Notes under the pieces: model-generated
The model's database searches: none
Told to the model about the DNA's origin: nothing
Seen by the model: only the letters and a program-made list of their open reading frames with translations
Program-made: the position numbers and the translations under genes
NCBI GenBank assembly: GCA_008360975.2
Contig: CM039210.1
Span: forward strand, 22,901,007 to 22,965,006
Origin: Lichenostomus cassidix
Taxonomy: Eukaryota; Chordata; Aves; Passeriformes; Meliphagidae
Reading direction: 5' to 3'
Length of the DNA stretch: 64,000 nucleotides
Part shown: one piece after another, positions 6,661 through 41,692 of the stretch
How the letters are laid out: the number at the start of each line of letters is the position of its first letter
Numbering within the stretch: the first letter of the stretch is position 1

Positions 6661-6921
6661 GAGAAGGCTGACCAAAACACCCATATGGGAACCACAGTGG
6701 CCCCTGCCAAAAGACAAATTAGTCGCCCTTTGTCAGCTGGTTCAGGAGCAACTGCAACAGGGACACATTGAGCCTACTACCAGCCCCTGGAACACCCCTG
6801 TTTTTGTGATTAAGAAAAAATCGTAGAAATGGAGACTGTTGCAAGATCTCCAAAAAGTTAATGCAGTGATGGAAAGTATGGGGAGCATACAGCCTGGCAT
6901 GCCCTCACCTATGATGATTCC
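6661..6921 (+). pseudogene. pol: A1 reverse transcriptase, N-terminal part
   Basis: RT fingers region, recognisable from [25 protein letters not shown] at 6824-6826 interrupts it where A2 has a glycine codon. The domain is cut at 6921 by a solo LTR and resumes at 7323 after the GATTCC duplication. Confidence 0.85.
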
Positions 6922-7316
6922 TGCAGCAGTGCAGAACCGAAAGGCAGCTCTCCCCTGCTGCGGGGGGAGGGCTGCCCCAGAACCGGAACATGCAGGATGG
7001 TCATTCCATGGCCACGAGCTGTGGGACTGGTCAGACGCGGTCCTTGTAGAAGCGTCACAGGTTTAGAAAGGCAGCTGTTTCGTTCCTGGTCTCCATGGTG
7101 TTTTTATTGTGGAAAACAGGGGAGGAGTGGGGAGACTGAGGAGGGGGAAGGGAAGACAAGGGAGGGTACAGGTTCCATACGAGCCCAGAACCAAAGAGAC
7201 CCGTTCTGGATCTTGCTGGGGTTTTTATCTCTAGGGATGGGAGGCGGTCCTGACTCACATCCAGTCAGAAGGGGTCAGGGGGGCGGGATCAGGGACAGGA
7301 AGGAAACGTTACAACA
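6922..7316 (-). repeat. class II solo LTR in A1 RT
   Basis: A 395-bp insertion starting TGCAGCAGTG and ending TTACAACA, flanked by GATTCC (6916-6921 and 7317-7322). Read on the minus strand it starts TGTTGTAACG and carries AATAAA, so it is oriented against A1. A 6-bp duplication fits a class II element. Deleting it plus one duplication restores alignment with A2. Confidence 0.9.
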
Positions 7317-7322
7317 GATTCC

Positions 7323-8145
7323 CACAGAGTGGGAAATCTTGATCGTTAATTTGAAAGACTGTTTTTTCACAATTCCTTTGCACCCCAATGACAGACAAAA
7401 ATTTGCCTTTGCTGTGCATGCAATTTACAAGGCTGAGCCTGTAAAGAGATTTCAATGGAAACTATTGCCACAGGGCATGAAGAATAGCCTGACTATCTGT
7501 CAATGGTATGTCACTCAGGCCTTGTCCAGAATCATTGAGCAGTTTCCTGAGGCACTCTGCTACCATTATATGGATGATATCCTGGTGGCAGCATCCACCC
7601 AGGATGAGTTGCAGAGGTTACAGCCGAGATTGCTCACTGCCCTGCATTCCTATGGGTTGCAAGTGGCTCCGGAGAAAGTTCAACAACAGCCTCCTTGGAA
7701 ATATTTGGGAGTCAAAATTTTGGATCGAACCATACAGCATCAAGAGGTGCAATTCTCAGACTCTATTAAGACCCTGAATGATGCCAAGAAATTGCTGGGT
7801 ATCATCAACTGGTTACGTCCATATTTGGGACTAACCAATGCACAACTTTCCCTACCTTTTAAAATTTTAAAGGGGGACTCTGATCTAAAATCACCTTGGC
7901 AATTGACTCTTGAGGCACCACAGGTGCTGAATGAGGTGCAACAAGCTGTTTCTGCTCATCAGGTTTATCGAGTAGATCCCTCTTCTGATATCACTGTTTT
8001 CATTACTGCTCCAGACCTCCATCCTACAGGCATCATTGGCCAGTGGAACAAACAATGGGATGACCCTTTGCACATCCTGGAATGGGTCTTTTTGCCCCAT
8101 CAGCCAAAAAAGACAGCACCCACATTGTTCGAGTTGATAGCTTGA
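7323..8145 (+). pseudogene. pol: A1 reverse transcriptase, catalytic part
   Basis: RT palm and thumb: [20 protein letters not shown] and the active site YMDD at 7567-7578 are intact. The frame ends at 8145 with the same stop and frameshift as A2: about 100 bases around this lesion are identical in the two copies. RNA- and DNA-directed polymerisation would need a continuous Pol, so the copy is non-functional. By eye it is about 97-98 percent identical to A2 here. Confidence 0.9.
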
Positions 8146-10316: not shown

Positions 10317-10701
10317 TGTTGCAGTGGCTTTAGCTCAGCTGAGCGTCCCTAGCAGTGGCATTGCCCCACGGGATGAGTCATGGGAATAAAGCAGCCCTAA
10401 AGGGGGTACTCCCAGAGAGCCTTGAAGTAAAGCTATTGGCCCAGCTCATCTCCCCTCCCATATGAATTCTAGAAAGTTCTCCTTTGTCTGCCTTTGCCGT
10501 GTTCTCTGATTGGAAAATTTAAAGTTCTGTATCCTCCCCCCTTGTTCCCCCATAAGATCAAGTTATTGTCAATCCAGAGTTCTATGTACCCCATTGGTTC
10601 TTTCAGTTTCTCCTCTCCCTTTTTCCCCTGCTATATTAGCCACAACACAACGTAGAAACCCTGCTTTGAACTCGCCGATCCAGCCCTATTCCTTCCCCCC
10701 T
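10317..10701 (+). repeat. K 5' LTR, first part
   Basis: Begins TGTTGCAGTGGC and matches the 3' LTR at 25,282. It is interrupted after 10,701 by provirus S and continues at 16,619. The LTR ends in TTTA rather than the usual CA in both copies. Confidence 0.93.
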
Positions 10702-11504
10702 TGTGACGGTCCACTCATAAGCAGACGCGTGATGGTTCATACCAGCTACGATCTCAGAGTGCAAAAAGGAAAAGAAAACACAAAATGCAATAAGTCAAGG
10801 GAGTTAAATTTGAATCCAAGGGGGAACTTTATTAATTTGGCCTGTAAAGCGGCCTGCGATAGAGAGAGAGAGAGAGAAAATTGGGAAAAGATGGGGAGGA
10901 AAGGGAAGGAAGGGGGCTATAGCTACCACCACGGGTCCACAGACGTCCGGCGTCCCTGGCGTCCCGGTCAGTCGGCGTTCCTTGGCCTCTGCAAAGATCG
11001 ATGTGATCTTTCGGCGGGGAAGATCTTCAGAGTTCAGCCACTCCAGAGCTGTCTTTTATGCTAGTCCATATACCTGGTCCCTTCTTGCCACCCGCCTTTG
11101 CTCCCCCTTAATTCTTGTGGAGATTTGCCAATCTCCACTTGGCAGGGTCAAGGGAGGAGTGTCTGAGGCATGGTCGGCGGGTTTTTCACAATGGGTGTCA
11201 GGGCAACGGGTGCAAAGCCTTCGTCACATACCCGCTTTGGCAGGCACAAGGCCTTTGTTCTGTATCAACTCAGGCAGGTGCAAAGTCTTCGTTCTGTACC
11301 ACCTTGGGCAGGTACAAAGCATTCGCTCCATATCAGCTTTGGGTAGGCACAAAGCATTCGTTCCGTACTACCTTAGGCGGGCACAAAGCATTCGCTCCCC
11401 ACCAGCCTTAGGTAAGTACAAAGCATTCTCTGCGTGAGTCCTGCACCTGTAATTTCTGATGAGAAATGTTGAGACAGAACTCGATTCTTGGATCGACCCT
11501 TACA
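10702..11504 (-). repeat. S 3' LTR
   Basis: On the plus strand starts TGTGACGGTCCACTC and ends GACCCTTACA; in the element's own direction it starts TGTAAGGGTC. It differs from the 5' LTR at scattered transitions and in the length of a GA microsatellite near 10,861. It has the tandem repeat array listed separately. Confidence 0.92.
11207..11436 (-). repeat. about 38-bp tandem repeats in the S LTR
   Basis: About six imperfect units sharing GCACAAAGCATTCGYTCC or GGTGCAAAGYCTTCG. In the element's orientation the array lies near the start of U3, where retroviral enhancers usually sit. The 5' LTR has the same array at about 16,316-16,545. An enhancer role is inferred from position only. Confidence 0.75.
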
Positions 11505-11534
11505 CCACCCGGTGGCTCAACATTTATCTTCAGG

Positions 11535-11625
11535 ACCAGTTGTCTTCTTCATGATGAGTCGTCTTCTGGGTGAGTTGTCTTTCTTTGTGATGAGGTGTCT
11601 TCTGGATGAGTTGTCTTCGGGACCA
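11535..11625 (-). repeat. short repeats next to the S 3' LTR
   Basis: Imperfect copies of GAGTTGTCTTCTGGATGA (purine-rich AGAAGACAAC on the minus strand). They lie between env and the 3' LTR, where a polypurine tract is expected. I see no classical polypurine tract directly at the LTR border, where the minus strand reads GAGCCACCGGGTGG. Confidence 0.5.
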
Positions 11626-11823
11626 CATGGTGGTAACACTAAGGATGGGGGAACGGGATAGAAGGGAAGGAAGGGAAACAAGAAAGGAAGGAAATTTTCA
11701 CATAACCTTTTGCCATGCAGCTTGCTCAATATCAAAAGATTTTGGTATGTCAATACTGGATATAACACTCAAGGGCTTGCGTGTATTAAATGTGGATGAC
11801 AAAAGTTTCATTTGCTTGATCAT

Positions 11824-13330
11824 TCACCAATTAAGTATGTACAAAATTACAGACAGGATGATACTGATTAGGGAAAGGATCAGGAGAACGACGATTGGGT
11901 GGCACAGCTTGTTCAGAATGCCTGTGGCAGTAGGTGACCACCCAAAAAGTGTGTCCCACCAATTATGTTCTCCATCCTTTTTCACCCTCTTCATGACCTT
12001 TTGTAATTTGTCTACATTATGGTGAACTGTTATTAGAGTTTTTTGTCCATTTTTCTTGATCTCCTCTAATATTTGAATATAATCTCGATGCTGCAGCAAT
12101 TCTTTTGTATGAGTTATGTTTATTCTAATAGATACAGGCATTAGCTCATGAATCAATGTGAAGTTAGATTTCAGAATTTGGTGGGAAGTGACTGGAGCTG
12201 AGTAAGAGAAGTCACACCCCATGATTTCAGTAAAATTACAAACACAAAAATTCGTATGATTATTGGTATAAGCTACTACATTTCCTACTGTGATATTACT
12301 ACAAACAGTTCTTAAGCATGCACAACCTTTGCCAATATAGATTATTACAGTTTTAGGGTTAACATCAGGACGAACTTCAAAATGGCAAACATTTTGGTCA
12401 GTGTCTAAACAAAAATCTCGTGTTCTGATGGTGTTATTTTTACAGTTGTTCCCGCACAATGCAGGATTCCAGGTCTATCATTTGCCATTTATCATTCACC
12501 TTTTGGGCCCATGCTCTGTGCTCGAAAGGATAGAGTATAGTTCCATTGTGGTTCAAGCCTAATGCAGAAACAGGATAAATCATAGATACTGAAGCATTGT
12601 GAATAGTTAATGCATAAGCTGTAACAGTGTTATTAACATGATTATAGGTAAAACTTACCAACTTCCACCAAGATTGGAGGTTCTTTTCAAAATTGTTAGC
12701 ACTATCCCAAATTATTTTTGGGATTTCTGTAGGAAAAATGCCTTCTTAAAGGCTGTTTCATTTTTGTCAGATCAAAAGTTGCAGTAGCCAATTTATTCAA
12801 TAATACCTCTGAATCAATGCTATTTAGAACTCCCAATCTAGTTCCTAAAAACACCAGTCAGGTCTCTTGATATTCATCTCCAGGAAAAAGGGAGCAACCT
12901 GTTTGAGAGACCATTCTGGTTTAAATAATGTTTGTTGTTGGCTGGTGTTTCCAATTACAAATGGTATTGAAAACCAGGTTCCACTTTTCTGCATCCCACT
13001 TGAATTTTTTCATCAATGATACTGGGTAGGGTTCTAACCCACTCATTTTTATCCCAGACCCAATCAGACAAATGGTAAATTTTGTCATCATGCATTATGA
13101 CTGCAGCCAAATTTGGATGGCTATTTTTGGAATAATTTCTGGAAGAGCTAGAATATCCTATGAAGGCTTGTATTATTTTGGTTATAGGTGGAAGATGTAA
13201 TGCAGAAAAGTACAAGCAACCTAATGAAAATTTTGTAGGCCATTTTCAGATTTAAGTCTTCAATTCTTATTCATATTTCTTCTATAGAAATTCTTAAAGT
13301 CCCACGGGGTTCTCCTGCAAAAACAAAAAA
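11824..13330 (-). pseudogene. env: S env remnant
   Basis: Three minus-strand frames (12,955-13,215; 12,440-12,661; 11,824-12,459) read as one broken envelope gene. They have many N-glycosylation sites (NXS/T) and cysteines. The last frame ends with a membrane-proximal GWSPTATG stretch, then a strong hydrophobic membrane anchor and a very short tail. I find no clear CX6CC or immunosuppressive motif. A TTTTTGTTTTTGCAG stretch upstream, near 13,313, would serve as a splice acceptor for env mRNA. Env would mediate receptor binding and fusion; this copy is interrupted by frameshifts and stops. Confidence 0.7.
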
Positions 13331-13362
13331 TAGAGACCTTGCCCTTTTCAGGCAAAAGGGAA

Positions 13363-15351
13363 TTAAAATGATGGATCAATAAACCAGGCATTTATTGTTT
13401 GGTGTTGGGAAAAAGGAGGGGCCACCCGGATGACTGAGGCAGGTTTATCTTGGTTGATATCCAGGCTCTCTGTTTCTTGGGTAGAAAGGTTCTTTGAGGC
13501 TTCTTCTGTTACAGAAAATACAACGCAGAAATGCTCAATCTGTGCATCGACTTCAATGAAAGCCAGGCTTGCCACAAACAAGCCTTTCTCCCAAGCAGTA
13601 TACCTTTTCTCAGCATCCTTAAAACTGCAAGAATAAAATCCCACAATAGCTGTTATTAACACATCTCCTTTTTCTGTTTTGGTGAGCTGTTTAACATAGA
13701 ACCATTCTCCATTTCCCTGCCCACCACTAGGAAATGGAGATCCTAGTTTCCCTGTTCTGGAGAAAAAGATTTGCTTTGATGTCTCATCTGCAGTCTCAGT
13801 GAAAGGGGGGGCAGAAGCTGTGACGGGTGTGCTTTCTTTCACAGAGGAAGGTGGTTTTGTCACACGGCACTGAGTTACCAGTTTGCACAATTTTTCTAAA
13901 GGTAAACCATCCATCAAATCTCTAGGAATTTCTTTTTTAAGTCCTAAACGCCACCAATCAAGTTGGACAGAAAGGGGTTTAGGCTGTGACAGGTCCTTGG
14001 CAACATCCATAGTTTTGCTGGGGCAGGGCAGTGCATTTTTGACTCCTACTTGCTGAATACCTCTTGATCTCTCTTCTAGAGGCCTTATCAGACAGTATTT
14101 TCTACTGTAATCAACTAATTCTTGTGTTACCTCCCCCCATGTCCAGACTTTAGGTCTAGGGTGAGGTCTGTTACCTGGCAGGGCTGGTGTTGAAAAGTCA
14201 GAGGAATTTGTGTAAGAGTCTGTACTGGTACTGCCTATATTTCTGCTATTATCACCTCTGCACATAAAAATCTGCGACCGCTCCACAGGACTCATTGATG
14301 CTGTGGTCTTCTGGAGACTTGTCTCTGTGGTTTTGAGTGATTCAGGCAGTCCCCTTATTAAGGCAGTCATAATTTTAGGGTTAACAGATAACATCATCGG
14401 TAATTCACATCCAAGAATTAGTTTTCTCTCATGTATCATTTGTAGGCAAACAGCTTTGTGTACACTTTCTAGTAATTGGTCAGCTGTGCCTATTATTGCC
14501 AAGGGGTCTCCCCTGTCCAGAGGGTTTAACCCTCCAGCCCAGTGAGCAGCATGCTGAGTTAGAGACCATGGGGCTCGGTGATCACCTGTTGTTAAGAAAA
14601 CTCCGTGGCCCCAATAACCCTCAGCCTCCTTTTCACTCAATTGTATTTGATCACCCCCAGTTAAAGACACATATTCTGTTTCAGATTCTTTGATAAGATG
14701 CCCATATTCCCTTTTGAACTTGGCTAGTTTAGTGGCAGAATAGGGCGTTTCCTTGGTGATTATGTGGGGGTCAGTATCTTCATCATTAGGGTAAGAAAAT
14801 TCAGTTTTGAATAAGGGTCTTAAATAAGGGGGATTTTCATCAAATTTTTTCATCTGTTCCAATTCCTTCTGTGGATACATCAGGTTAATTGATCCTGATG
14901 ATGCTATATTCTGTGAACTAGTGTTCTGTGAATTAGTGTGATTTACTTCAAGAGCAGCCCTTAAGGAATGGTTTTCTTCTTCCTTGCGCTCTAATTCCTT
15001 TTCCAGTTTGGAAATTGTTGTTTGGTGACAACGCACCAGGTTTTCTAGGGATTCTATGATTTTTTCTTCATTACTACGCTGCCTATGATGGTCTTCAATG
15101 GCTGCGATCAAGCTGGCACCCAAAACAGAACAGACTATTGTCCTGCTTTTTCCTGGTAGTAAAAACTTAACTTTAGCCTCATTCTGTAGCAGAGAAATCC
15201 GATCTACAATACTCTGCATATTTTTCCAATTATCTCTAGCCCAATCTTCCCCAATAGGAGAGGGTCGAGCACCATATTTAGCCAAAAATGTAAATAATAC
15301 ATCTTTATCATCCACCAACTGAGAATCTCTCTTCTCCTGTTTGCCAGGCAT
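13363..15351 (-). CDS. S gag-like 662-aa ORF fused to a pol remnant
   Basis: Uninterrupted from the ATG at 15,351. The N-terminal 60 residues look matrix-like but lack Gly2 (MPGKQEK). A coiled coil spans about residues 93-137 (heptads around SKLEKELERKEEE). Residues about 180-350 form a capsid-like globular region containing GVFLTTGDH and HAAHWAGG. Pro/Ser-rich linkers follow. Near residue 570 the text becomes pol-like: VGFYSCSFKDAEKRYTAWEK matches the RT connection, and the extreme C-terminus FIDPSF matches an RNase H start whose TDGS motif is changed. There is no zinc knuckle, protease or RT core. Overall this is a Gag fused in frame to the tail of Pol by a large deletion. Homology to Ens-1/ERNI is suspected. 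A non-ERV cellular gene is unlikely given the LTRs and primer site. Confidence 0.75.
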   Translation of the reverse strand: MPGKQEKRDSQLVDDKDVLFTFLAKYGARPSPIGEDWARDNWKNMQSIVDRISLLQNEAKVKFLLPGKSRTIVCSVLGASLIAAIEDHHRQRSNEEKIIESLENLVRCHQTTISKLEKELERKEEENHSLRAALEVNHTNSQNTSSQNIASSGSINLMYPQKELEQMKKFDENPPYLRPLFKTEFSYPNDEDTDPHIITKETPYSATKLAKFKREYGHLIKESETEYVSLTGGDQIQLSEKEAEGYWGHGVFLTTGDHRAPWSLTQHAAHWAGGLNPLDRGDPLAIIGTADQLLESVHKAVCLQMIHERKLILGCELPMMLSVNPKIMTALIRGLPESLKTTETSLQKTTASMSPVERSQIFMCRGDNSRNIGSTSTDSYTNSSDFSTPALPGNRPHPRPKVWTWGEVTQELVDYSRKYCLIRPLEERSRGIQQVGVKNALPCPSKTMDVAKDLSQPKPLSVQLDWWRLGLKKEIPRDLMDGLPLEKLCKLVTQCRVTKPPSSVKESTPVTASAPPFTETADETSKQIFFSRTGKLGSPFPSGGQGNGEWFYVKQLTKTEKGDVLITAIVGFYSCSFKDAEKRYTAWEKGLFVASLAFIEVDAQIEHFCVVFSVTEEASKNLSTQETESLDINQDKPASVIRVAPPFSQHQTINAWFIDPSF

Positions 15352-15358
15352 CTTTTTC

Positions 15359-15633
15359 CTTATCCTGACTCAGAAATAAAACCAACAACAAAACCAACGA
15401 CAAAAACAACTCAAATCTACTTGAGAAACATTTCTCTCTATCCTGATTCAGAAATAATACAACCTCAAAAGAATATAACAACAAAAAACAGCTCAAAATC
15501 TATCCTGAAACAAAACAACTCCAAAAACAATGCAACAACAACAGCTCAAAATTCATTTGAGAAACAAATTCTCAATCCTGAAACAAAACAACTTCAAAAA
15601 CAACAAGAACAGCTCAAAACTACTTGAGAAAGT
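15359..15633 (-). repeat. S leader tandem repeats
   Basis: Four degenerate units of 62-76 bp beginning ATCCTGA and rich in CAACAAAAACA, each with AACAGCTCAAAA or AACTCAAAT. They occupy the 5' untranslated leader between primer site and ORF; on the sense strand it is T-rich. Possible roles in packaging or translation are speculation. Confidence 0.65.
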
Positions 15634-15792
15634 GAGATAATTGCCTATGGCCACTCTTACCCTTTCTCAGGTGTCACTAAAACAAAAATTTAACTCCCCT
15701 TCCTTTTGCACTCTAAGTCCTGATAGCCGGAATCCCAATAGAGTCCTCAAAAAATGAGTTTCGAGGGGTTTTGTCCCTCAGCCTCTGTCAGG

Positions 15793-15810
15793 ATCCTGTC
15801 CGTGACGCCA
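15793..15810 (-). other. S primer binding site, tRNA-Ser(CGA)-like
   Basis: On the minus strand, TGGCGTCACGGACAGGAT, five bases after the 5' LTR. It matches the 3' end of vertebrate tRNA-Ser(CGA) at 17 of 18 positions as I recall that tRNA. Confidence 0.75.
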
Positions 15811-15815
15811 ATTTA

Positions 15816-16613
15816 TGTCACGGTCCACTCATAAGCAGACGCGTGATGGTTCATACCAGCTACGATCTCAGAGTGCAAAAAGGAAAAGAAAACACAAAAT
15901 GCAATAAGTCAAGGGAGTTAAATTTGAATCCAAGGGGGAACTTTATTAATTTGGCCTGTAAAGCGGCCTGCGATAGAGAGAGAGAAAATTGGGAAAAGAT
16001 GGGGAGGAAAGGGAAGGAAGGGGGGCTATAGCTACCACCACGGGTCCACAGACGTCCGGCGTCCCTGGCGTCCTGGTCAGTCGGCGTTCCTTGGCCTCTG
16101 CAAAGATCGATGTGATCTTTCGGTGGGGAAGATCTTCGGAGTTCAGCCACTCCAGAGCTGTCTTTTATGCTAGTCCATATACCTGGTCCCTCCTTGCCAC
16201 CTGCCTTTGCTCCCCCTTAATTCTTGTGGAGATTTGCCAATCTCCACTTGGCAGGGTCAAGGGAGGAGTGTCCGAGGCATGGTCGGCGGGTTTTTCACAA
16301 TGGGTGTCGGGGCAATGGGTGCAAAGCCTTCGTCACATACCCGCTTTGGCAGGCACAAGGCCTTTGTTCTGTATCAACTCAGGCAGGTGCAAAGTCTTCG
16401 TTCTGTACCACCTTAGGCAGGTACAAAGCATTCGCTCCGTATCAGCTTTGGGTAGGCACAAAGCATTTGTTCCGTACTACCTTAGGCGGGCACAAAGCAT
16501 TCGCTCCGCACCAGCCTTAGGTAAGTACAAAGCATTCTCTGCGTGAGTCCTGCACCTGTAATTTCTGATGAGAAATGTTGAGACAGAACTCGATTCTTGG
16601 ATCGACCCTTACA
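15816..16613 (-). repeat. S 5' LTR
   Basis: 798 bp, starting TGTCACGGTCC and ending GACCCTTACA on the plus strand. Same family as 10,702-11,504, with the same repeat array. Followed directly by the CCCCT duplication. Confidence 0.92.
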
Positions 16614-16618
16614 CCCCT

Positions 16619-20610: not shown

Positions 20611-20872
20611 TGTGGCTAGCACAGTTTTTCCCATGAGAAGTTTTCTTGTGTTTTGTAAATAAAGATAAAGTTTGGATGTTTTTGGAACAGTGTCCCAGAA
20701 CTTGGGCAGTGCAGGCCTGGCCAATCAGGCCTGGGGGAAGGCTTCTGACTGACCAATCTGGGTGACTTTTGAGAACTCTATATATGTGATGAAATCAAAA
20801 CAATAAAGGTCATTCCTTCTTACCACTGAGAACCGATGCATTCATTACTCTGCTAGCTGCTCAACAGCAACA
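20611..20872 (+). repeat. solo LTR in K RT
   Basis: 262 bp, TGTGGCTAGCACAG to CAACAGCAACA, flanked by ATGGAG (20,605-20,610 and 20,873-20,878). Same family as the LTR at 50,768-51,031 and related to the A1/A2 LTRs. TATATATG and AATAAA signals are present. Confidence 0.93.
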
Positions 20873-20878
20873 ATGGAG

Positions 20879-22273
20879 GACATGGGAACCCTTCAGCTGG
20901 GACTTCCATCCTGGACTATGCTGCCCACAGACTGGAAATTAATAGTGATTGACTTAAAAGACTGCTTTTTTCACATCCCGTTGCACCCCGCAGACGCGCC
21001 GACATTCACGTTCTCAGTGCCATCAAAAAACAATGCCGCACCAATGAAAAGATACCATTGGACAGTTTTACCTCAGGGAATGAAAAATTCCCTGACCATT
21101 TGCCAATGGTTCGTGGACAAGACTATAGCTCGTGTGAGAGCCCAATCTCCTGGAGTTCATATTTTACATTACATGGATGACATTTTAATTTGCACAAAGA
21201 CGCTAGAGCAAGTGCACGTCACCATGGCACTTCTCAGTCACGCGCTCACCGAAGCTGGCTTCACCATCCGGCTAGATAAGGTGCAGCAAATGGCTCCAGT
21301 CAAATACCTAGGACTCGCGGTGAGGGACAGGACCATCATCCCCCAACCACTTGTCATCGTGTACGAGCCCAGAACCTTAAGGGACTTGCACAAGCTCTGC
21401 AGATCCACTAATTGGATCAGGCCACTGTTAGGCATCACCACAGAGCGCCTTGCACCTCTTTTTAATCTGTTGCAGGGGAGGGGGGAGCTAGACTCTCCTC
21501 GAACCCTCACGCCAGAGGCGCGACAGTGTATTGTTGATGTCCAGCAAGCCATCACGCAGAGACAGGCCCACCGCTGCGATCCAAAACTCCCGTTTGAGTT
21601 AATTATCCTGGGAGAAGGACAGTTCACACACGGTCTCATTTATCAATGGGACTCAAGCCTGAAAGACCCATTGTTGATAATAGAGTGGGTTTTTCTGCCA
21701 CATCAACTGGCCAAAACAATAACAACAGCACAAGAACTCTCAGCCAAGGTCATTAAAAAGGCGAGGTTGCGGCTGAGGGCTCTTGCGGGTCTCGATTTCA
21801 CCTGGATACAGGTGCCCTTTCAATCAGAAGATTTGGAATTCCTCCTAAAATTTTCTGAACCGCTACAATATGCCTTGGAGGGCTTTACGGGGAAAATCCA
21901 ATCAGGACACAAAAAGCACAAATTATTTAACACTGAATTTCGGCTGGTTCCAAAACCTCTCCTCTCAAAGCATCCAATAAAGGATGCTTTGACCATTTTC
22001 ACAGATGGCTCCGGGGCTTCGCACAAGTCCGTGCTGACTTGGAAGAACCCCCAGACACGGCAGTGGGAAGCCGATGTCGAGGTCGTCCAAAGATCGCCTC
22101 AGGTTGCAGAGCTTGCCTCTGTGGTCAGAGCCTTCAAGCGGTTCCCCGAACCATTTAACTTAATTACTGACTCTGCCTACGTTGCGGGAGTCACCCTCTG
22201 GGCAGAAAATTCGGCACTAAAAGAAACCTCGAATTTGACTGTGTTTAACTTGCTCCTGAGGCTCATAGATGCC
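20879..22273 (+). pseudogene. pol: K RT catalytic core and first part of RNase H
   Basis: Open through [20 protein letters not shown], the YMDD active site near 21,172-21,183, the thumb and connection, and the RNase H residues FTDGSG, E and ITDSAY. It is cut at 22,273 by a solo LTR. Active-site residues are intact throughout, making this one of the best preserved pol domains in the window. Confidence 0.9.
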
Positions 22274-22747
22274 TGTTGTAGTGTGCTTATGCTGTTCTAG
22301 AGACTTCTCCCTAGCAGAAGCCTGTACCATCCCATGCTGTAATCTTATTGGTTTACCCCTTTCTTCTCCCTGGCTCCTCCCCTCTGGCTTCCCCTAGTTG
22401 GTTCTTCTGAGTAACCACGCCTCTGTTCCCTCTCCTGATAACCCGCTGCAAAAGCCTCCCTCGCTGTTCACCATCTTGGCTTTCCAGCACCCCGAACCCT
22501 CCCCCGCCTCTCCGTCCCTCTCCACCCTCCTCTGACCCTCGACTGTGGACCTTAATAAATCCCTGGAAACTTCAGATGGTGATCCTGCATTTCTTCCATC
22601 GCCACACCTTCACAGAGTCTCGTGTCCCCTGCAGCTCCACTGCCTGCTACAGCCCCGTGTCCGCCTGGCGTGTTCTGGCCACGGGCGGCCCCCTCCACAT
22701 TGCGGCATGGGGTGGCCGTTTGTGAATCGTGATTCCGCGTTGCCACA
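22274..22747 (+). repeat. solo LTR in K RNase H
   Basis: 474 bp, TGTTGTAGTGTGC to GCGTTGCCACA, flanked by GATGCC (22,268-22,273 and 22,748-22,753). AATAAA near 22,553. A 6-bp duplication fits class II. Confidence 0.92.
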
Positions 22748-27278: not shown

Positions 27279-29015
27279 TCAACCCCAACTAAGGTCTCCC
27301 TGAGGTATGCATCGTGCTTCTCCATCCTTTTGCATCACCCACCAGGTACACCCTGGTCCCTGAGCGAAAACAACCCCACGGGTGGGTCTGTCTTTGCCTG
27401 AGGTAGAATCAATCCAAACAGTTTTCCCTAGCATGCCTCTCATGTGTACCACTGGAACTTTATCCCCGTCTGCTGTTTGCAGGGGTTCAGATTGAGCAGG
27501 GCCAGCTCGGTTGGTGGAACCTCGGGTGTTAACTAGCCAGGTGGCCTTGGCTAAATGCTGTTCCCAACCTTTAAAAGTCCCCCTGCCTAAAGCTTTCAAG
27601 GTGGTTTTTAGCAGACCATTGCATCGCTCCACTTTGCCAGCAGCAGGTGCATGATAAGGAATGTGGTACACCCACTCAATGCCATGTTCCCTAGCCCAGG
27701 TGTTTATGAGGCTATTTTTAAAATGAGTCCCGTTGTCTGATTCAATTCTCTCAGGGGTACCATGCCTCCACAGGACTTGATTTTCAAGGCCCAGGATGGT
27801 GTTACGGGCAGTGGCATGAGGCACAGGGTAGGTTTCCAACCACCCCGTGGTGGCTTCTACCATTGTGAGCACGTAGCGCTTGCCATGGCGGGTTTGAGGC
27901 AGTGTGATGTAATCAATCTGCCAGGCCTCTCCATACCCTAGGAACTGGATCTCTTGGGCAGGTCCTTTGACTTTGCTCTTCTTGATGGCGAAGCCGGCTT
28001 CCAGGAGAATTTGGATGATTTTCTCTCCTTTCTCAAACACTTCTTCCGCTGTGCTCCCCCACACAATGATGTCGTCGATGTACTGCAGGTGTTCCGGAGC
28101 CTCACCCTTTTCCAGAGCAGCCTGGATCAGTCCATGGCAGATGGTGGGACTGTGCTTCCACCCCTGGGGCAGTCGGTTCCAGGTATACTGCACGCCCCTC
28201 CAGGTGAAAGCAAACTGAGGTCTGCACTCTGTTGCCAGAGGACTGGAGAAAAATGCATTTGCAATGTCAATAGTGGCATACCACTTTGCTGCCTTGGACT
28301 CTAGCTCATACTGGAGCTCCAGCATGTCTGGCACAGCAGCACTCAGAGGTGGAGTCACCTCATTCAAGGCACGATAGTCCACAGTCAATCTCCATTCTCC
28401 ATCAGATATTCGCACAGGCCAGATGGGGCTGTTAAAGGATGAATGGGCCTTGCTTACCACCCCTTGGCTCTCCAGCTCACGGATCATCTTGTGGATGGGA
28501 ACCACAGCATCTCGATTAGTCCTGTATTGCTGGCGGTGCACTGTCGAGGTGGCAATTGGTACTTTTTGGTCCTCCACCTTCAAAAGTCCAAATGCAGAAG
28601 GGTTCTCTGATAGTCCAGGCAAGGTGTTCAATTGCCTCACGCCCTCTGCCTCGACAGCAGCTATTCCAAAAGCCCACTTGAGTCCTTTCGGGTCTTTGAA
28701 ATAGCCGTTACGGAGGAAGTCTATGCCCAGAATACATGGAGCCTCTTGACCAGTCACGATGGGATGTTTTTGCCACTCCCTCCCTGTCAGGCTCACCTCG
28801 GCTTCCACCAGGGTCAACTGCTGTGATCCCCCCGTAACCCCAGCAATAGAGATGGATTCAGCTCCCGCAAGCCCCGATGGCATTAGGGTATACTGCGCAC
28901 CTGTATCAACTAGTGCTTCATATTTTTGTGGCTCTGATGCGCCAGGCCATCGAATCCACACAGTCCAAAAAACACGGTTTTCCCGTACCTCTACCTGGCT
29001 AGAGGCAGGGCCCCT
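27279..29015 (-). pseudogene. pol: L1 pro-pol with in-frame deletion from RT to integrase
   Basis: In frame with gag after one TAG at 29,016-29,018. The protease has ALVDTGAQYTLMPSG. RT contains VDYRALNEVTPP, IDIANAFFSSPL, LPQGWKHSP and the active site YIDD near 28,075. At about 27,945 the reading passes from the RT segment IQFLGYG directly into the integrase core (WQIDYITLP), so RT thumb, connection, RNase H and the integrase zinc domain are missing without loss of frame. The integrase triad is intact (D in WQID, D in ESDNGTHF, E in GKVERCNG), with a C-terminal domain after it. The 560-codon frame has no stop, so the deletion may be old and transmissible. Confidence 0.9.
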
Positions 29016-35339: not shown

Positions 35340-35752
35340 CTATCTACAACATCGGTTTACACAACTAGCTATGGCAAAAATAATAACTACAATTACAATA
35401 ATTATAAATGTTTCTTTCACCCAGGCCCAGTCTGGCAACCATGAAGTGAGGGCATGGAAAATTTGGTCAAATTTCAAGGTGTAATTTCTTGAACCCACTT
35501 CGTGTAGAATTTGAGTTCCCTTCCAAATTTCTTTCAAATCCTCTCTGATTCTCCCATCTTGGTCCACAAAGGAAATGACCATTTCCCCTTCCCATTTAGA
35601 GGTGGTAATTGAGTACAGATCCAGCAATTGCTCATATTAAGAGCTTTGGATACGTTTTGCATCACAGTATTTTGCAACTCCTGGGCTGAGCCCTGAGTCA
35701 TGGTTACCAGTTGGAAAAACAGCATACATGTAAGGAACAATTTAACCATCAT
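35340..35752 (-). pseudogene. env: G2 env, internally deleted
   Basis: The ATG at 35,752 overlaps the pol end, as in other gammaretroviruses. A signal peptide (LFLTCMLFFQLV) and a short surface-subunit start with the CWIC disulphide-exchange motif are followed by a jump and frame change to the end of the transmembrane subunit (membrane anchor rich in I and V, then a short tail ending CVNRCC). Most of the surface subunit, cleavage site and fusion peptide are missing, so no functional Env is possible. Confidence 0.85.
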
Positions 35753-37871
35753 CTTGATTTGTATCAGTCTCTGTTTTCTCGGTAGTCTCAGGAGCAGAAG
35801 CTTTCTTCACTCTGGAATAGTGGATCCACGGTCCTTTCCCAGCAACCTTGACAGCAGTGAGGGTGGTCAGCAAGACTTGGAATGGTCCCTTCCACTTGGG
35901 TTGCAAGGGGTCACTATCCCACCACTTGATGTAGACCCAGTCTCCAGGCTGAAACGGATGGGCAGGGATGTCCAATCCTATGGGCTTGGACAGGACAACG
36001 AATCTCTGGAGCTTCTGCAAAGTGGAACTCAAAGCCATTAAGTATTTCTGCAAATCAATTTTTCCCCTCATGTGAATATCACCTGGAATGTGTGGAACTT
36101 GATATGGTCTGCCATATAGAATCTCATAGGGACTTATGTTGTCCCTTCGCCTTGGTTGTATGCGGACCCTCAGTAAGGCTATAGGCAAAGCCTGAACCCA
36201 TGTCATAGATGTTTCTTGACAAATTTTTCCAATCTGGGTTTTGAGGGTTCCATTTATACGTTCAACCTTGCCACTTGCTTGGGGCCTGTATGGTGTATGC
36301 AGGTCCCAAGTGAGTCCCAGGATCTTGCTAACTTCCCCGACCACTGTTGCAATAAAATGTGGTCCCCTATCTGATGACATTCCCAAGGGAACCCCAAATC
36401 TTGGAATTATATGATTGAGCAAAGCTTTTACTACCTCTTTTGCTGCATTGGTGCGACAGGGATAAGCTTCAGGCCATCCACTGAATGTATCAACCAATAC
36501 CAATACATATTTGTATCCTTCCCTCCATGGCATTTCAGCAAAATCTATTTGCCAGTAATCTCCCGGGAGATGCCCTGTCTTGGTCACTTTTAACACTACC
36601 CTTTTAGTTGTGTCAGGGTTGTTTTTGCAGCATGTTTCACACTTGCTTGTTACAGACTGCACGATGTCAGTCATTCCTCTCCCTATCACTACTTTCTTTA
36701 GATGTTTTAAAAGGTTTTCTGTTCCCCAGTGTGTACTTTCATGTTCTCTTTGCACTATTTCTCGAAGGATCGGGGGTGGGACTACAACCTGGCCTACAGG
36801 TGTAACAGCCCACCCACCCTCTTTAATTTCAGCCTTAAGAGATTTAATTAACTGTTGGTCACTCTGATCATATTTTGGGGCAAACCCTGTCAAATCTACT
36901 TCTTTCTGTGGCACTATTGCAAAAATGCCTTTTTCTGCTATCCCTCTTGCCATTTCATCAGCAAAGCGATTTCCCACTTCAGGAGTTGTCTTCCCCTTTT
37001 GATGACTTTTGCAGTGCATGACAGCTACTTCTGTAGGTTTCCAGATGCTCTGCAGGAGTGCTAGGATTTGTTTGGCATGTTTAATGCCATTACCTTGAGC
37101 AGTCAACAGGCCACGTTCTTTCCAAATAGCTCCATGGGCATGAACAACACTGAATGCATATTTGGAATCAGTCCATATATTTACCTTCTTTCCCTCGCTC
37201 AGTTCTAGAGCTCTGGTCAGTGCAATCAGTTCAGCTTTCTGTGATGATACATCTGAAGGCAAGGCTTTTGCCTCAATCACTTCATCTGTGGTGGTCACTG
37301 CATAGCCTGTCATACGCTTACCGTTCCGTATGAAACTGCTCCCATCAGTAAAAAGTTCCCAATCTGGATTCTCCAGAGGCACATCCTTCAGGTCTGGTCT
37401 ACTGGAGTAGGTTTCTTCTATTGTCTGCAAACAGTCATGCTCAGGCACGTTATCAAGCAATGTAGACGACAAGAACATTGCGGGGTTTACAACAGATGTT
37501 GTTTTTAGAGTGACATCATCCTGTTCCAACAATACAGCCTGGTATTTAAGCATTCTGCTAGGGGATAACCAGTGTCCCCCCTTTTGCTCCAGCACAGAAA
37601 TCACGGCGTGGGGTACATACACGACAATGTGCTGCCCAAGGGTGAATTTCCGAGCTTCCTGGATTAGGATGACAGTTGCTGCCACGGCTTTCAGACACCC
37701 TGGCCACCCTTGGCTAACATTGTCTAGTTGTTTTGAAAAATAAGCTACAGCTCTTCGCTGATCCCCAAGATATTGTGCTAGCACCCCAAGAGCTACATTC
37801 TGCCGCTCGTATGTGAACAGTTCGAAGGGCTTTGTTAAATCTGGCAGCTCTAAAGCTGGAGCAGACATCAA
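35742..37871 (-). CDS. pol: G2 pol: connection, RNase H and integrase
   Basis: A 709-codon open stretch after the second pol stop. RNase H: FTDGSS, ELIALTRALE, TDSKYAF and an HCKSHQKG loop typical of gammaretroviral RNase H, then NRFADEMA. Integrase: HESTHWG and CETCCKNN make the HHCC domain; WQIDFAEMP, SSDRGPHF and SGKVERINGTLK give an intact DDE triad. The C-terminal domain includes WKGPFQVLLTT and WIHYSRVKKA. All catalytic residues are present, but translation is blocked upstream. Confidence 0.92.
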   Translation of the reverse strand: MMSAPALELPDLTKPFELFTYERQNVALGVLAQYLGDQRRAVAYFSKQLDNVSQGWPGCLKAVAATVILIQEARKFTLGQHIVVYVPHAVISVLEQKGGHWLSPSRMLKYQAVLLEQDDVTLKTTSVVNPAMFLSSTLLDNVPEHDCLQTIEETYSSRPDLKDVPLENPDWELFTDGSSFIRNGKRMTGYAVTTTDEVIEAKALPSDVSSQKAELIALTRALELSEGKKVNIWTDSKYAFSVVHAHGAIWKERGLLTAQGNGIKHAKQILALLQSIWKPTEVAVMHCKSHQKGKTTPEVGNRFADEMARGIAEKGIFAIVPQKEVDLTGFAPKYDQSDQQLIKSLKAEIKEGGWAVTPVGQVVVPPPILREIVQREHESTHWGTENLLKHLKKVVIGRGMTDIVQSVTSKCETCCKNNPDTTKRVVLKVTKTGHLPGDYWQIDFAEMPWREGYKYVLVLVDTFSGWPEAYPCRTNAAKEVVKALLNHIIPRFGVPLGMSSDRGPHFIATVVGEVSKILGLTWDLHTPYRPQASGKVERINGTLKTQIGKICQETSMTWVQALPIALLRVRIQPRRRDNISPYEILYGRPYQVPHIPGDIHMRGKIDLQKYLMALSSTLQKLQRFVVLSKPIGLDIPAHPFQPGDWVYIKWWDSDPLQPKWKGPFQVLLTTLTAVKVAGKGPWIHYSRVKKASAPETTEKTETDTNQDDG

Positions 37872-38959
37872 GGAATGTTTTAGTTATTTAAATGCAGACC
37901 TTGCTTTCTCTGTCCAGTTAATGGTTCCCTTTTCAGCTGTCTTTAGGGTTTCATACAGAGGCTTTACCAGTATTCCATACTTTGCCACCCAAAGTCGACA
38001 CCAACCTACCATGCCGAGGAAAGCTTGCATCTCTCTCACTGTGTGGGGCTCTGGAAGCCGACAGATAGCTTCTTTCCGTTCTCTGCTAAGTTGTCGATGA
38101 CCACGGAAGATTTCCAGCCCCAGGTATACTACAGTTTCTTTGGCAACTTGTGCTTTTTCCTTTGTGACTCGGTATCCGCCCATGCCCAAAAAATTCAAAA
38201 GACTTACAGTGAGTTGGATGCAGTCATGTCATGTTTTTGCTGCGATCAGGATGTCATCCACATATTGGAGGATTTCTCCTTTTGGTTCCTGTTTTTTCCA
38301 GTCTTCCAGTTCCTTTGATAGCTGGTGTCCGAATATTGTTGGGCTGTTCTTGAACCCTTGGGGTAACACTGTCCAAGTTAGTTGAGTCTTTCTTCCTGTC
38401 TCAGGATTTTCCCACTCAAAAGCAAAAAGCTCCTGGCTATCTTTGTGGATTGGAATAGAGAAAAAGGCATCTTTGAGATCTAAGACTGAGAACCATCCTA
38501 ATTCATTTGTTAATGTGGTCAGAAAGGTGTAGGGATTTGGTACAACTGAATGTATGTCCTCTGTAATTCTGTTGATTGCCCTCAAATCCTGCACTAGCCT
38601 GTAACTCTTACCATCAGCTTTCTTTACTGGCAGGATGGGTGTGTTGTATTTGGACTCACATTCCACTAGCAACCCGAATTTGAGAAATTTCTCAATTACA
38701 GGTGCCAGTCCCCTACGACTTTCTAATTTCAGAGGGTATTGTTTCTGCCTTACCGGTGTTGCTCCTGCTTTGAGTGCAATACTCACAGGTTCAGCTCTTT
38801 TGGATCTCCCGGGAAAATCACTGGCCCATACTAGTGGAATTACCGCATCCTCAACTTCTTTAGAAATTTCTCCACAACATTCCTGGATAAGAATAGTAGC
38901 TGCTTTGACAAATTTAGATTCAGGAATTATAATTTTCACTCCCTCCTCCTTGGAAAATT
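37872..38959 (-). pseudogene. pol: G2 reverse transcriptase with two nonsense codons
   Basis: RT from about 38,830 downwards: LDLKDAFFSIPIH, LPQGFKNSP and the active site YVDD near 38,255. A TGA at 38,229-38,231 follows a few codons after YVDD, and a TAA at 37,884-37,886 ends the thumb/connection. The reading frame is otherwise unbroken, so these two point changes are the only lesions seen in pol. Confidence 0.92.
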
Positions 38960-39279
38960 TAATTTCTGCTTCCAATTTTTCCAATAAATCTCTGCCCAAC
39001 AATGGTTTTGGAGAATTTGGCATATATAAAAATTGATGAGTCACCCAATGTTTCCCCAGTTTAAATCTTAAAGGTTGAAAGAAAGGCCTTGTTTCACTTA
39101 CCCCCGTGGCACCAATTACATCTACAGTATCTTGACTCAGTTTCCCCTTTAAAGTATTTAACACAGAATATGTTGCCCCTGTATCAACCAAAAATTCAAC
39201 ATCATCTTTCCCCAGCTTAATTATAACCGAAGGCTCCGCTGGGGTGGATAATGCCTTCGGTCCCCGTCGATTCCCATTC
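38960..39279 (-). CDS. pro: G2 protease, continuous with Gag
   Basis: FLVDTGATYSVL near 39,180 is the active site; GRDLLEKL is near the C-terminus. The frame runs from gag without the stop codon that normally separates gag and pol in gammaretroviruses. Confidence 0.88.
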
Positions 39280-41189
39280 ACAGCTAATTGAGAAGATGTG
39301 GGCATCTCCTTCGCCCGCATTGGACACTCGTTCTTCCAGTGTCCCTTCTTCTTGCAGATGGCACACTGGTCCTCGGCTAGAGGAGGGTGAGGTGGACCCT
39401 TTCTTTTCCCTTGACCCTGTTTCTTCTTGTAGTGGGGTTTACCAGTATCCTTATCTGTTGAATCCCTATTTTGGTATACTTTCCAGGCTGCGTTCAACAA
39501 CCTATTTATATCATACTCATCCAATTTTTGCAGCTTTTTCCTTATATCAGGTGTAGATTGGCCTACAAATATGTAGGATAAATGAGACTGCTGCATTGGG
39601 GAATCCAAGTCCAAGTTTGTGTACTTCCGTGCAGCCTCTTTGAGCCTGTTCAGGAAATCTGTGGGGGTCTCAGTTAGACCTTGCCTAATTTCATATACTT
39701 TGGCCCAATTAATTGCTTTAGGAATAGCACATTTTAGTCCAATAACTATCCACTTTTGATACTGTTTTAATTTGGCCATTTCCTCTGGCACATTGGGATC
39801 CCAACCTGGATCTATCAAAGGAAAAATATTACCAACAGGTCCTTGAATGGTTCCAGCTGCAATTTGAGTTTCCACAGCATTTACAGCAGCCTTGATAACC
39901 ATCTGCTTTTCTGTACTATCCAGTACCTCATCTAACATTACATTCAGGTCACTCCAATCTGGGTTTTGTGCCTTGATAGCTAATTCAAACCGCATGGCTA
40001 CTTTCTCCGGATTATCTCTGTATGTTCCAACTGATTCTTTCAATTGTCGGAGTTCTCCGAGGGAAAAAGGAGTTTTGATATAAACCATCCCTTGATTCCC
40101 GACAGCCTGCCTTAGGGGTGCTTCCAGGACAGGCTCCCCCTTCCTTGGTTCATCCATCTTAGACCTGGTACGCTTTGCCACTGGACTGGGAGCTCCGATA
40201 GCTTCCCGGGCTATTTTCCCCCTTTTCTTCCCAGCAGGTTTGCTGCCTGCAGCTTCAGCCTCGGTTTCCCCTTCTACTTCTGAGCTATCTGCATCTGCAC
40301 TGGATTCATCTGACTCACGCTTGATTTGGATTTTTTCCTTCTCAGCTCTAGTGGAGCTGTGGGGAGGGTGCCGCCCACTGCCCCCCCTTTCCCCAGTCTG
40401 GGAGGGGCCAGCGGTGGATGTGCTTCCCTCTCCGTCCTGGTCAGTCCCGGTTCCGCCCTTCCCTCCGCCCCGGTCCCTCCTTTTGCCTCTGCCCCTGCTT
40501 CCACCCCTGTCTCCACCCCTGTCTCCGCCCCTGCTCCCGCCTTCATTCTCGTCATCAGACCGCTCCGGGGATGGTGGCAGTGGGGGAGGAGGCGGCCACA
40601 CCTCCTCTCTCCCCCGTGCTGTATCAAGTAAGTGAAGGGGAGGAGCAGACGGCCAGAATGGCGGTGGGGGAGGAGAAGGAGGAGGGAGAGGAGGAAGAGG
40701 GGGGAGGAGAGGGGGCACCGGCCCCTGTTGCGGCTGGGGTGATGCCCCCCTTCGTAAATTTGGTGCCACCAAGTCTGTGTCTGTCATGTCTATCTCCTCA
40801 TCTTTTGTCGGAGGCTTCTTCTGTCTATCTTTCTTCTTTTCTAATTTTTGTAAAGCCATCTCAAAGCGGTTCTTTTTCATTTGCTTATACGCTTCTTCTC
40901 GATTTAGAAATATAGAAAACAATTCTGCATATCTTAACTCCTTAAAACTGCCCTGAACTCGGAGTTCCACGAGTAACTTTGTAATAAGTTCATTATCTAA
41001 ACTGCCTAACCGAGGCCATTTACTCCCCCCTTCCAGCTTCAACGCAGGCCACACCCACAGTGAAAGTCTAGTTAATTCACCAGAATGTAATTCAACACTT
41101 CGTACTGTCAGCATATTCCAGTTTTTCAAAATCAAACCCAGTGGGGAATCCTGTGGGATGTTTGGATTGGTAGATAACACAGCGCCCAT
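39280..41189 (-). CDS. gag: G2 Gag polyprotein
   Basis: The ATG at 41,189 begins MGAVLS, a myristoylation signal. Matrix is about residues 1-130. A long Pro-rich and Gly/Arg-rich spacer (p12-like, with SRGGDRGGDRGG repeats) follows. Capsid starts near PFSLGELRQLKE (about 40,060), with the gammaretroviral LTETPTDFLNRLKEA homology region near 39,680. Nucleocapsid has one knuckle, CAICKKKGHWKNEC, at 39,326-39,367. No stop or frameshift was seen. Length and order match gammaretroviral Gag. Confidence 0.92.
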
Positions 41190-41375
41190 TCTCTTACTTA
41201 TAAACAGAAAGAAACAGTAGGATAAAGTTTCTAACCTATAAATTAGCACAGAACCAGCAGAGCAAAGAAAGCAAGCCTGAAAACAACGTGTGTTCAGCTT
41301 AGAAACCCTGGCGGGATTCGAACTTCTGTTCGAACCCACACCCCAACCTGTGGGCTGCAGCCCCCTCTGAGCCAC
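41190..41375 (-). other. in-frame N-terminal extension of G2 Gag (glycoGag-like)
   Basis: The gag frame is open for 62 codons upstream of the ATG. It includes a hydrophobic Cys/Phe/Leu-rich stretch (about residues 31-60) just before matrix, and an in-frame CTG near 41,360. Murine gammaretroviruses make glycoGag from an upstream CUG with a similar membrane anchor. Only the open frame and hydrophobicity are seen; translation is inferred. Confidence 0.5.
41314..41338. other. leader hairpin with B-box-like sequence
   Basis: GGGATTCGAAC and GTTCGAACCC form an inverted repeat around a TTCT loop. The minus strand reads AGTTCGAATCC, close to the tRNA/pol III B-box GGTTCGANTCC. Lies in the leader between primer site and gag. 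Confidence 0.6.
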
Positions 41376-41692
41376 AGCCCCCTGTGAGCCCTATGCGGCT
41401 CCCTGTGAGCTTTACGAGGGGCGTCCCCCCACCCTGTGGGAGCAGAGCGGTTAAAAAACCCCCTTTATGGCCCCCCTGGCCACGCTCCCACCCTCGGAGA
41501 TCTCCCGACTGCTAGCAGTTATCTATAAAACCATAAAACAACCCCTTTGATCTTACCTCCCCAGCTGTGTTCCTGCAGTCTTGGGAAACTCCCGGATTCC
41601 GATCCTGGAAATCACTGCCTCTCTCCCCAGTGCCGGCAGTGGGAGATGCGGCAGGGTGTTCTTCGGTCCAAAATCAAAACCCGGGGTTCCTT

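What the first reader, a model, noticed from the sequence alone, without database searches (positions are those of the whole stretch)
10702..16613. Provirus S keeps a 662-codon gag-like ORF and env but has lost nearly all of pol
Between two ~98 percent identical LTRs with a clean CCCCT duplication there is one unbroken 662-codon frame with a coiled coil and capsid-like core. It fuses directly to the RT-connection/RNase H start, followed by env. No protease, RT core or integrase exists. An element that cannot copy itself yet keeps a long intact frame suggests trans-mobilisation by a partner and selection on the fused protein. It recalls Ens-1/ERNI of the chicken Soprano element (recollection). 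The tRNA-Ser(CGA) primer, leader repeats and U3 repeats make it distinctive.
Basis: partly seen in the sequence, partly recalled or inferred. Interest (0 to 1): 0.88.

Follow-up and report, generated by a model that had tools for sequence, protein, structure and literature searches.

The report
Pol-less bird retrovirus spread by relatives
A defective endogenous retrovirus, probably of a bird, keeps one long Gag-Pol fusion gene and has been copied many times with the same internal deletions, apparently by borrowing the enzymes of pol-bearing relatives in the same genome, much as mouse IAP elements do.

Summary
A minus-strand provirus at exactly 10702-16613 has two 97.5% identical LTRs, a CCCCT duplication and one open 662-codon frame; protease, RT core and integrase were not found, and env is broken. 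It is not a one-off: at least 31 places in the genome carry the same junctions at 95% identity or more, on 13 contigs. Of 29 copies read over the whole ORF, 17 are open to the shared stop. Pol-bearing relatives exist (six fetched, five scanned). The ORF is Gag, a frame change into the pol frame, then a 448-codon deletion reaching the RNase H region. Of 21 copies with both LTR ends resolved, 12 have perfect target duplications; LTR divergence goes down to 0.1%. Some copies are mosaics with pol-bearing relatives, which points to co-packaging and mobilisation in trans. The reading frame is protected while env decays, but amino-acid constraint is not detectable among the copies closest to this one, so selection on the fused protein is only partly supported. 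Published ENS-1/ERNI peptides match at collinear positions (3 of 7), but the HP1 box, LTR motifs and oligos do not: a relative of ENS-1, not a copy. Closest mechanistic parallel: mouse IAP IΔ1.

The parts
10697..10701 (.). target-site duplication CCCCT, 3' side of the element
10702..11504 (-). 3' LTR, 803 nt, begins TGT and ends ACA
11505..11659 (-). 3' untranslated end with short repeats; 98.7-99.3% to four siblings, 88.8 and 97.4% to two pol-bearing copies; no clear polypurine tract just before the 3' LTR
11660..12300 (-). segment 97.5-100% identical to pol-bearing copies (12148-12300 also 93-100% to siblings); the part 11824-12147 is missing in 23 of 25 deleted copies whose 3' half was read and present only here and in the C4 copy (L010/L039): probable recombinant patch
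11824..13245 (-). env remnant in several frames, with internal deletions relative to pol-bearing copies; the longest piece, 11824-12474, reads 216 aa
13363..15351 (-). 662-codon fused ORF (Gag - start of pol frame - RNase H region), stop included
13774..15351 (-). Gag part, about aa 1-526, with a coiled-coil-like helix and the three ENS-1-like motifs at aa 50, 179 and 479
13645..13773 (-). about aa 527-569: after a one-nucleotide frame change, start of the pol (protease) frame
13366..13644 (-). about aa 570-662: RT-connection/RNase H sequence reached by the 1344-nt in-frame deletion; a second, 119-nt deletion inside
15352..15640 (-). 5' leader with T-rich direct repeats
15793..15810 (-). primer-binding site (18 nt starting TGGCGTCACGG), 5 nt after the LTR
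   Evidence: tRNA identity not confirmed
15816..16613 (-). 5' LTR, 798 nt, AATAAA about 130 nt before its end; about 34-bp tandem repeats in U3
16614..16618 (.). target-site duplication CCCCT, 5' side of the element

Best explanation
It is one copy of a successful non-autonomous endogenous-retrovirus lineage. Shown: against pol-bearing copies this class lacks 1344 nt (448 codons, with a 6-nt overlap at the joint) between the start of protease and the RT connection, more of RNase H and integrase, and pieces of env; a one-nucleotide frame change lets Gag run past its old stop into the pol frame, giving one Gag-RNase-H-fragment protein of 662 aa. Copies with these junctions sit at many sites, 12 of 21 resolved ones with perfect target duplications, and some are mosaics with pol-bearing relatives. 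Inferred: its RNA is packaged together with RNA of pol-bearing relatives, whose protease, RT and integrase copy it in trans. The open Gag frame persists because a Gag translated from the same RNA helps that RNA to be packaged (cis preference), as reported for IAP IΔ1. The fused tail is probably tolerated rather than needed.
For: 31 of 40 scored matches (86 candidates) carry the junction region at 95% identity or more, 9 more at 84-86%. 17 of 29 copies read over the whole ORF are open to the shared stop, one of them with an in-frame deletion. 12 of 21 copies with both LTR ends resolved (window included) have perfect 5-bp duplications, of 11 different sequences; K2P from 0.0013 upward. Five pol-bearing copies scanned give RT and RNase H matches above cut-off. 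L021 and L030 are 96-100% identical to pol-bearing L026 over about their first 390 (L030: 455) residues, then 97-99% to a deleted sibling and 86-92% to L026 apart from two matches of under 50 nt; the window copy has a parent-like patch at 11660-12300. 0 stops among 192 shared codon changes, about 8.3 expected. In 17 close copies (L001-L011, L013-L017, L023) the ORF has one shared indel, of 3 nt, the env remnant eight shared frame-shifting gap intervals at six sites.
Against: No expression, particle or packaging data. In L001-L017 the shared N/S is 2.70, close to neutral 2.85, so a recent burst from a few open masters could explain part of the open frames. The ORF copies were first picked by protein match; broken copies were added afterwards from the search lists, and env was not read in most of those. 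One of the env sites lies at the cut edge of the alignment. The right-hand end of the window copy's patch is weak: one pol-bearing copy is 97.4% identical there too. Mosaics could in principle arise by gene conversion after insertion. Nine of the 21 resolved copies lack a perfect duplication.
Confidence: 0.84

Rival explanations
1. Recent burst without function: a few open master copies were copied quickly in trans; the frame is open only because there was little time, and the RNA alone (LTR, primer site, packaging signal) is what matters.
For: Near-neutral N/S among shared changes of L001-L017; private changes neutral, with 6 stops of 169 against 7.3 expected; L023 (LTR K2P 0.0013) and L024 (LTR pair not resolved) have a shifted frame.
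Against: In 17 close copies the env remnant has eight shared frame-shifting gap intervals (six sites, one at the cut edge) and the ORF none (with other sets); 0 of 192 shared codon changes is a stop; the more distant copies L020 and L021 (88% identical) are also open.
Confidence: 0.3
2. Host co-option: the fused Gag does work for the host, as ERNI does in the chick embryo, and the host keeps it.
For: Three published ENS-1 peptides match at collinear positions 50, 179 and 479 (0 of 1000 shuffles reach each score); ERNI has a role in chick development (PMC3958431, passages).
Against: Changes private to one copy look neutral, stops included, so no single locus appears to be guarded; the HP1 box PxVxL is PLEKL here and in the pol-bearing copies read; of four ENS-1 promoter motifs looked for in the LTR (TATA-like, Nanog, GATA, CP2) only a CP2-type match is present.
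Confidence: 0.1
3. Segmental duplication in repeat-rich heterochromatin spread one dead provirus.
For: Many copies lie on one contig, C32; a C71 copy lacks the LTR 3' part, leader and most of gag, and the C95 copies match the same 509-662 stretch, so these may have spread that way.
Against: Perfect target duplications of 11 different sequences in 12 of 21 resolved copies, and different LTR divergences; 13 contigs.
Confidence: 0.04

Closest known systems
Mouse IAP IΔ1 subtype (PMC6466679, passages read)
   Same: Deletion of part of gag and pol makes a gag-pol fusion ORF; non-autonomous; needs proteins in trans; in mouse it gives most new IAP insertion mutations and the fusion acts in cis.
   Different: Different retrovirus and host; IΔ1 is lower in copy number than full-length IAP, whereas here the deleted class seems the larger; here env remnants are kept and the deletions reach through RNase H and integrase; cis action is untested.
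Chicken ENS-1/ERNI (non-autonomous) and ENS-3/Soprano (with pol) (PMC3958431 passages and section 21, PMC3362752 passages, PMC10996621 passages)
   Same: Gag with N-terminal coiled coil; three collinear peptide matches; non-autonomous and pol-bearing forms side by side; recent copies.
   Different: The 54-kDa ENS-1 is 487-490 aa and the ENS1 consensus 4666 bp, here 662 aa and 5.9 kb; no PxVxL HP1 box; published ENS-1 oligos and most LTR motifs do not match.
Zebrafish BHIKHARI-1 (PMC10996621, passages)
   Same: Recently mobile proviruses that encode Gag but no pol, helped in trans by an inferred partner.
   Different: There no copy in the reference genome is predicted to encode pol; here six pol-bearing copies were fetched.
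Bovine ERVK[2-1-LTR] C/D types (PMC10924933, passages)
   Same: Competent and defective morphs; recombinants; defective ones outnumber competent ones.
   Different: D-type lacks intact ORFs; here a long Gag frame stays open.

Membership tests
ENS/Soprano (chicken ENS-1/ERNI) | Gag homology to published ENS-1 peptides | tested here: met
   3 of 7 published or primer-derived peptides match at collinear places, 0 of 1000 shuffles each; SUMO site 2 (best hit elsewhere), two coiled-coil flanks and the C-terminus do not match
ENS/Soprano (chicken ENS-1/ERNI) | HP1 box PxVxL | tested here: not met
   PLEKL at the homologous place; no match to a relaxed P-x-[VIL]-x-[LVI] pattern in the protein; same in the pol-bearing copies read
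ENS/Soprano (chicken ENS-1/ERNI) | ENS-1 LTR with TATA-like GATAAAA, Nanog, GATA and CP2 sites | tested here: not met
   5' LTR: no GATAAAA, TAATGG or WGATAR; one CP2-type match
ENS/Soprano (chicken ENS-1/ERNI) | DNA-level identity to ENS-1 oligos | tested here: not met
   8 of 8 oligos match no better than the best of 10 shuffles; the HP1-region primer matches 24 of 38 specified bases at the homologous place
ENS/Soprano (chicken ENS-1/ERNI) | Galliform host | not testable with these tools
Non-autonomous ERV of the IAP IΔ1 kind | gag-pol fusion ORF made by an internal deletion | tested here: met
Non-autonomous ERV of the IAP IΔ1 kind | one junction shared by many independent insertions | tested here: met
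Non-autonomous ERV of the IAP IΔ1 kind | pol-bearing relatives in the same genome | tested here: met
   six fetched; five scanned with Pfam
Non-autonomous ERV of the IAP IΔ1 kind | fusion protein helps its own RNA in cis | not testable with these tools
   needs experiment
Class III (ERV-L/spuma side) retrovirus | pol closest to spuma/ERV-L pol; 5-bp duplication | tested here: inconclusive
   Best solved relatives of one copy's pol: protease-RT chains that I recall as foamy virus, then gammaretrovirus-type RT; PFV integrase; 5-bp duplications; no RT tree made
Host-domesticated gag gene | single loci guarded by selection after insertion | tested here: not met
   Private changes neutral, 6 stops of 169, 7.3 expected

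The most novel reading that the evidence does not exclude
A long-lived parasite-of-a-parasite lineage: deleted copies that keep their own Gag outnumber the pol-bearing relatives of their family, exchange segments with them, and their Gag-RNase-H fusion protein has gained a role of its own, in packaging or in the embryo as with ERNI.
Probability: 0.15. Interest if true: 0.8.

Novelty: new variant of a known kind. Interest (0 to 1): 0.52.

Why it matters
Why a defective retroelement should keep a long gag frame is an open question. Here one genome holds deleted copies, pol-bearing relatives, mosaics of the two and a decaying env in the same copies as a built-in control, so frame protection can be measured. 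It also places a relative of the chick ERNI protein in a second setting without the HP1 box, which helps separate retroviral Gag features from the host role described in chicken.

Tried and rejected
AlphaFold without an alignment gave unusable models for the whole ORF and for a 205-residue middle part, so no fold search was made. Pfam and PDB sequence searches of the ORF found nothing above cut-off or convincing. The scan of IMG/VR viral contigs found no relative; Rfam none at the gathering threshold. Splicing as the source of the deletions was considered: the joints printed for two pol-bearing copies show short overlaps at some places and no GT-AG pattern. The first indel contrast (L001-L011, L013-L021 and L023) was biased because nearly all copies had been picked by an unbroken protein match; therefore used 29 copies, adding L022-L024, L029, L030 and L071-L073. 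The one frame-shifting indel shared by two copies, L023 and L024, sits in a C run on different backgrounds and is probably two events. Gap intervals are not all separate events: the ten shared env intervals lie at eight sites and the eight at six, one of them at the cut edge each time. A leader control (8 shared shifts, 3 shared multiples of three) is spoiled by my fixed cut, since 7 of its 15 rows lie at the edge. The N/S contrast of shared and private changes over L001-L021 (1.83 against 3.51, Fisher p 0.008) disappears inside L001-L017 (2.70 against 3.20, p 0.63); both are reported. Searches of the genome for a W-chromosome marker family, chicken ENS-1 oligos and the tRNA 5' end did not complete.

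Dropped rows: the nine C71/C95 matches, the partial copy L074 and the place C77:760851 were left out of ORF counts. L012, L022, L024, L029, L030 and L071-L073 had no env row; one search used 17 copies (L001-L011, L013-L017, L023). L003, L007, L012, L024 and L029 (and pol-bearing L028) had no LTR pair resolved. L073 was left out of the tree. The pol region of the sixth fetched pol-bearing copy (L066) was mapped by BLAST only, and other gag-bearing places were not read for pol.
Full report
What is there. The element is a provirus on the minus strand at 10702-16613. The LTRs (15816-16613 and 10702-11504) are 97.5% identical (K2P 0.0165), begin TGT and end ACA, and are flanked by CCCCT on both sides. 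A primer-binding site starting TGGCGTCACGG lies 5 nt after the 5' LTR. The LTRs carry about 34-bp tandem repeats and the leader is T-rich and repetitive. One open frame of 662 codons runs 13363-15351. The env stretch is scattered over several frames with stops; three pieces of it have no convincing Pfam match.

How many copies. The window lies at C32:22901007-22965006 of a 1.10-Gb genome in 514 contigs. A protein search (309 candidates, 67 scored, 70 rows) gave 21 places matching residues 1-662, the window included; 16 of these 21 are open to the same stop and five have a premature stop. A DNA search over the deletion junctions (86 candidates, 40 scored) gave 31 places at 95% identity or more on 13 contigs, and nine at 84-86% on C71 and C95. 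Both counts are lower bounds. Of 29 copies read over the whole ORF region, 17 are open to the shared stop (16 of the first set and one with an in-frame deletion) and 12 are broken.

Where it came from. Six copies with related LTR and leader (LTR pieces 74-96% identical to the window's) were fetched with sequence between gag and env. Pieces of five were scanned: all five give RT and RNase H matches above Pfam's cut-off; four give protease and four integrase (not every piece of every copy was scanned). Nearest solved structures for one copy are protease-RT chains that I recall as foamy-virus, then gammaretrovirus-type RT, and PFV integrase. Against two of them, L057 and L061, the deleted class lacks 1344 nt (448 codons, 6-nt overlap) between the start of protease and the RT connection, 119 nt in RNase H, about 1.26-1.27 kb to the end of integrase, and 710, 97 and 202 nt in env; three more pol-bearing copies show nearly the same breakpoints, with some extra breaks of their own in env. 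Of 25 deleted copies whose 3' half was read, 23 also lack 11824-12147 and 88 nt after it; the window copy and the C4 copy (L010/L039) keep it. Not every deleted copy has every env deletion: L010 keeps the 202-nt stretch, and the C268 copy (L024/L053) keeps three stretches that the others lost. In two of three pol-bearing copies translated, Gag ends at codon 543, and one has an earlier stop; in the deleted class a one-nucleotide frame change near codon 527 carries Gag into the pol frame, and the deletion then joins it to the RNase H region. So the 662-aa protein is Gag (about 1-526), a start-of-pol stretch (527-569) and an RNase H fragment (570-662).

Copying in trans. Of 21 deleted copies with both LTR ends resolved (20, plus the window), 12 have perfect 5-bp duplications, of 11 different sequences. 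LTR divergences run from 0.0013 to 0.080; those without perfect duplications may be recombinants and are not clocks. Mosaics are the strongest sign: L021 and L030 are 96-100% identical to the pol-bearing L026 over about the first 390 (L030: 455) residues, then 97-99% to the deleted sibling L014 while 86-92% to L026, apart from two matches of under 50 nt at 94-96%. The gag tree also nests L021 and L030 with the pol-bearing copies. The window copy is closer to siblings in most of its env remnant and 97.5-100% identical to pol-bearing copies over 11660-12300; beyond that, at 11507-11659, siblings are 98.7-99.3% and two pol-bearing copies 88.8 and 97.4%, so this second breakpoint is weak. Sibling L009 is also 99-100% identical in the parts of the patch that it holds. 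Retroviral recombination normally needs two RNAs in one particle (established knowledge), so I infer co-packaging.

Is the frame selected? For: among codon changes seen in at least two of L001-L021, 0 of 192 makes a stop, 8.3 expected. In 17 close copies (L001-L011, L013-L017, L023) the ORF has one shared indel, of 3 nt, and one private shift; the env remnant has eight shared frame-shifting gap intervals at six sites, one at the cut edge, and 13 private shifts. In the 21 copies it is three shared ORF indels, all multiples of three, against ten shared env intervals at eight sites. In 29 copies, broken ones included, the ORF has three shared multiples of three and one shared shift, the latter in a C run on two backgrounds, and six private shifts. 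Against: N/S of shared changes is 1.83 over L001-L021 but 2.70 in L001-L017, where neutral is about 2.85; so amino-acid constraint is visible only over older divergence, part of which may have been acquired from pol-bearing copies by recombination. Gag of the window copy against three pol-bearing copies gives dN/dS 0.33-0.44, which mixes both lineages; one of the three comparisons covers only 203 residues. Private changes look neutral, with 6 stops of 169, so individual loci are not guarded by the host. The tail shows no clear constraint (shared 19 N to 9-10 S over L001-L021), and two copies, L023 and L024, do without it. I conclude that the reading frame, mainly Gag, has been useful to the replicating lineage, with moderate confidence, and that the fused tail need not be.

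Relation to ENS-1/ERNI. From peptides printed in PMC3958431 (passages and section 21 read) three match P0001 collinearly: the 3807 peptide (ENS-1 47-62) at 50, SUMO site 1 (180) at 179, and the HP1-box region (469) at 479; 0 of 1000 shuffles reached each score. The other four of seven peptides do not match in place. The HP1 motif PxVxL is PLEKL here. Published LTR motifs are mostly absent and eight ENS-1 oligos match no better than in shuffled sequence. PMC10996621 (passages) describes ENS-1 as the non-autonomous variant of ENS-3/Soprano, places ENS-3 beside ERV-L, and reports a predicted capsid fold with a coiled coil for ERNI. PMC3362752 (passages) says the ENS family is found only in galliform birds and that Ens-1 was kept by negative selection, citing Lerat 2007, which I did not see. 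This element is therefore a relative with a similar life style, not a member by the tests I could run.

Novelty. The arrangement matches IAP IΔ1 (PMC6466679, passages) in kind. Keyword searches of the held library listed no paper whose title or abstract start describes this avian lineage; only listings were read for most of those papers, and most subscription papers are not held.

Noticed in passing
window 27285-29015, minus strand: A 577-codon open frame in which the RT domain (205-361) is followed at once by the integrase core (363-455), with no RNase H match between: perhaps a second internally deleted family with a fused pol. A very similar protease-region start is seen in the frame at 61272-61988.
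   Followed up: no
window 35745-41390, minus strand: Gammaretrovirus-like provirus with a 1053-codon frame (Gag p30, protease, RT) and a 713-codon frame (RNase H, integrase, MLV-type IN C-terminus).
   Followed up: no
window 6862-8142, 20807-22297, 51968-53152: Further RT frames with the retroviral thumb domain; the window is rich in endogenous retroviruses, as on a repeat-rich or W-like chromosome (W linkage not tested).
   Followed up: no
L075 (C71:1921200-1922600); C95 matches: More distant copies (84-86%) with the same junction; in the one read, L075, the U3 region is joined straight to gag at about residue 440. Eight of nine such matches lie on C95 and may have spread by duplication.
   Followed up: partly
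window 11505-11550, minus strand: No obvious polypurine tract just before the 3' LTR.
   Followed up: no
L023 and L024: Both have an extra C in the same C run near codon 515, on different sequence backgrounds, which closes the frame before the RNase H tail.
   Followed up: partly
L024/L053 (C268): Copy with the pol deletions but without several of the env deletions, perhaps an earlier stage or a recombinant.
   Followed up: no
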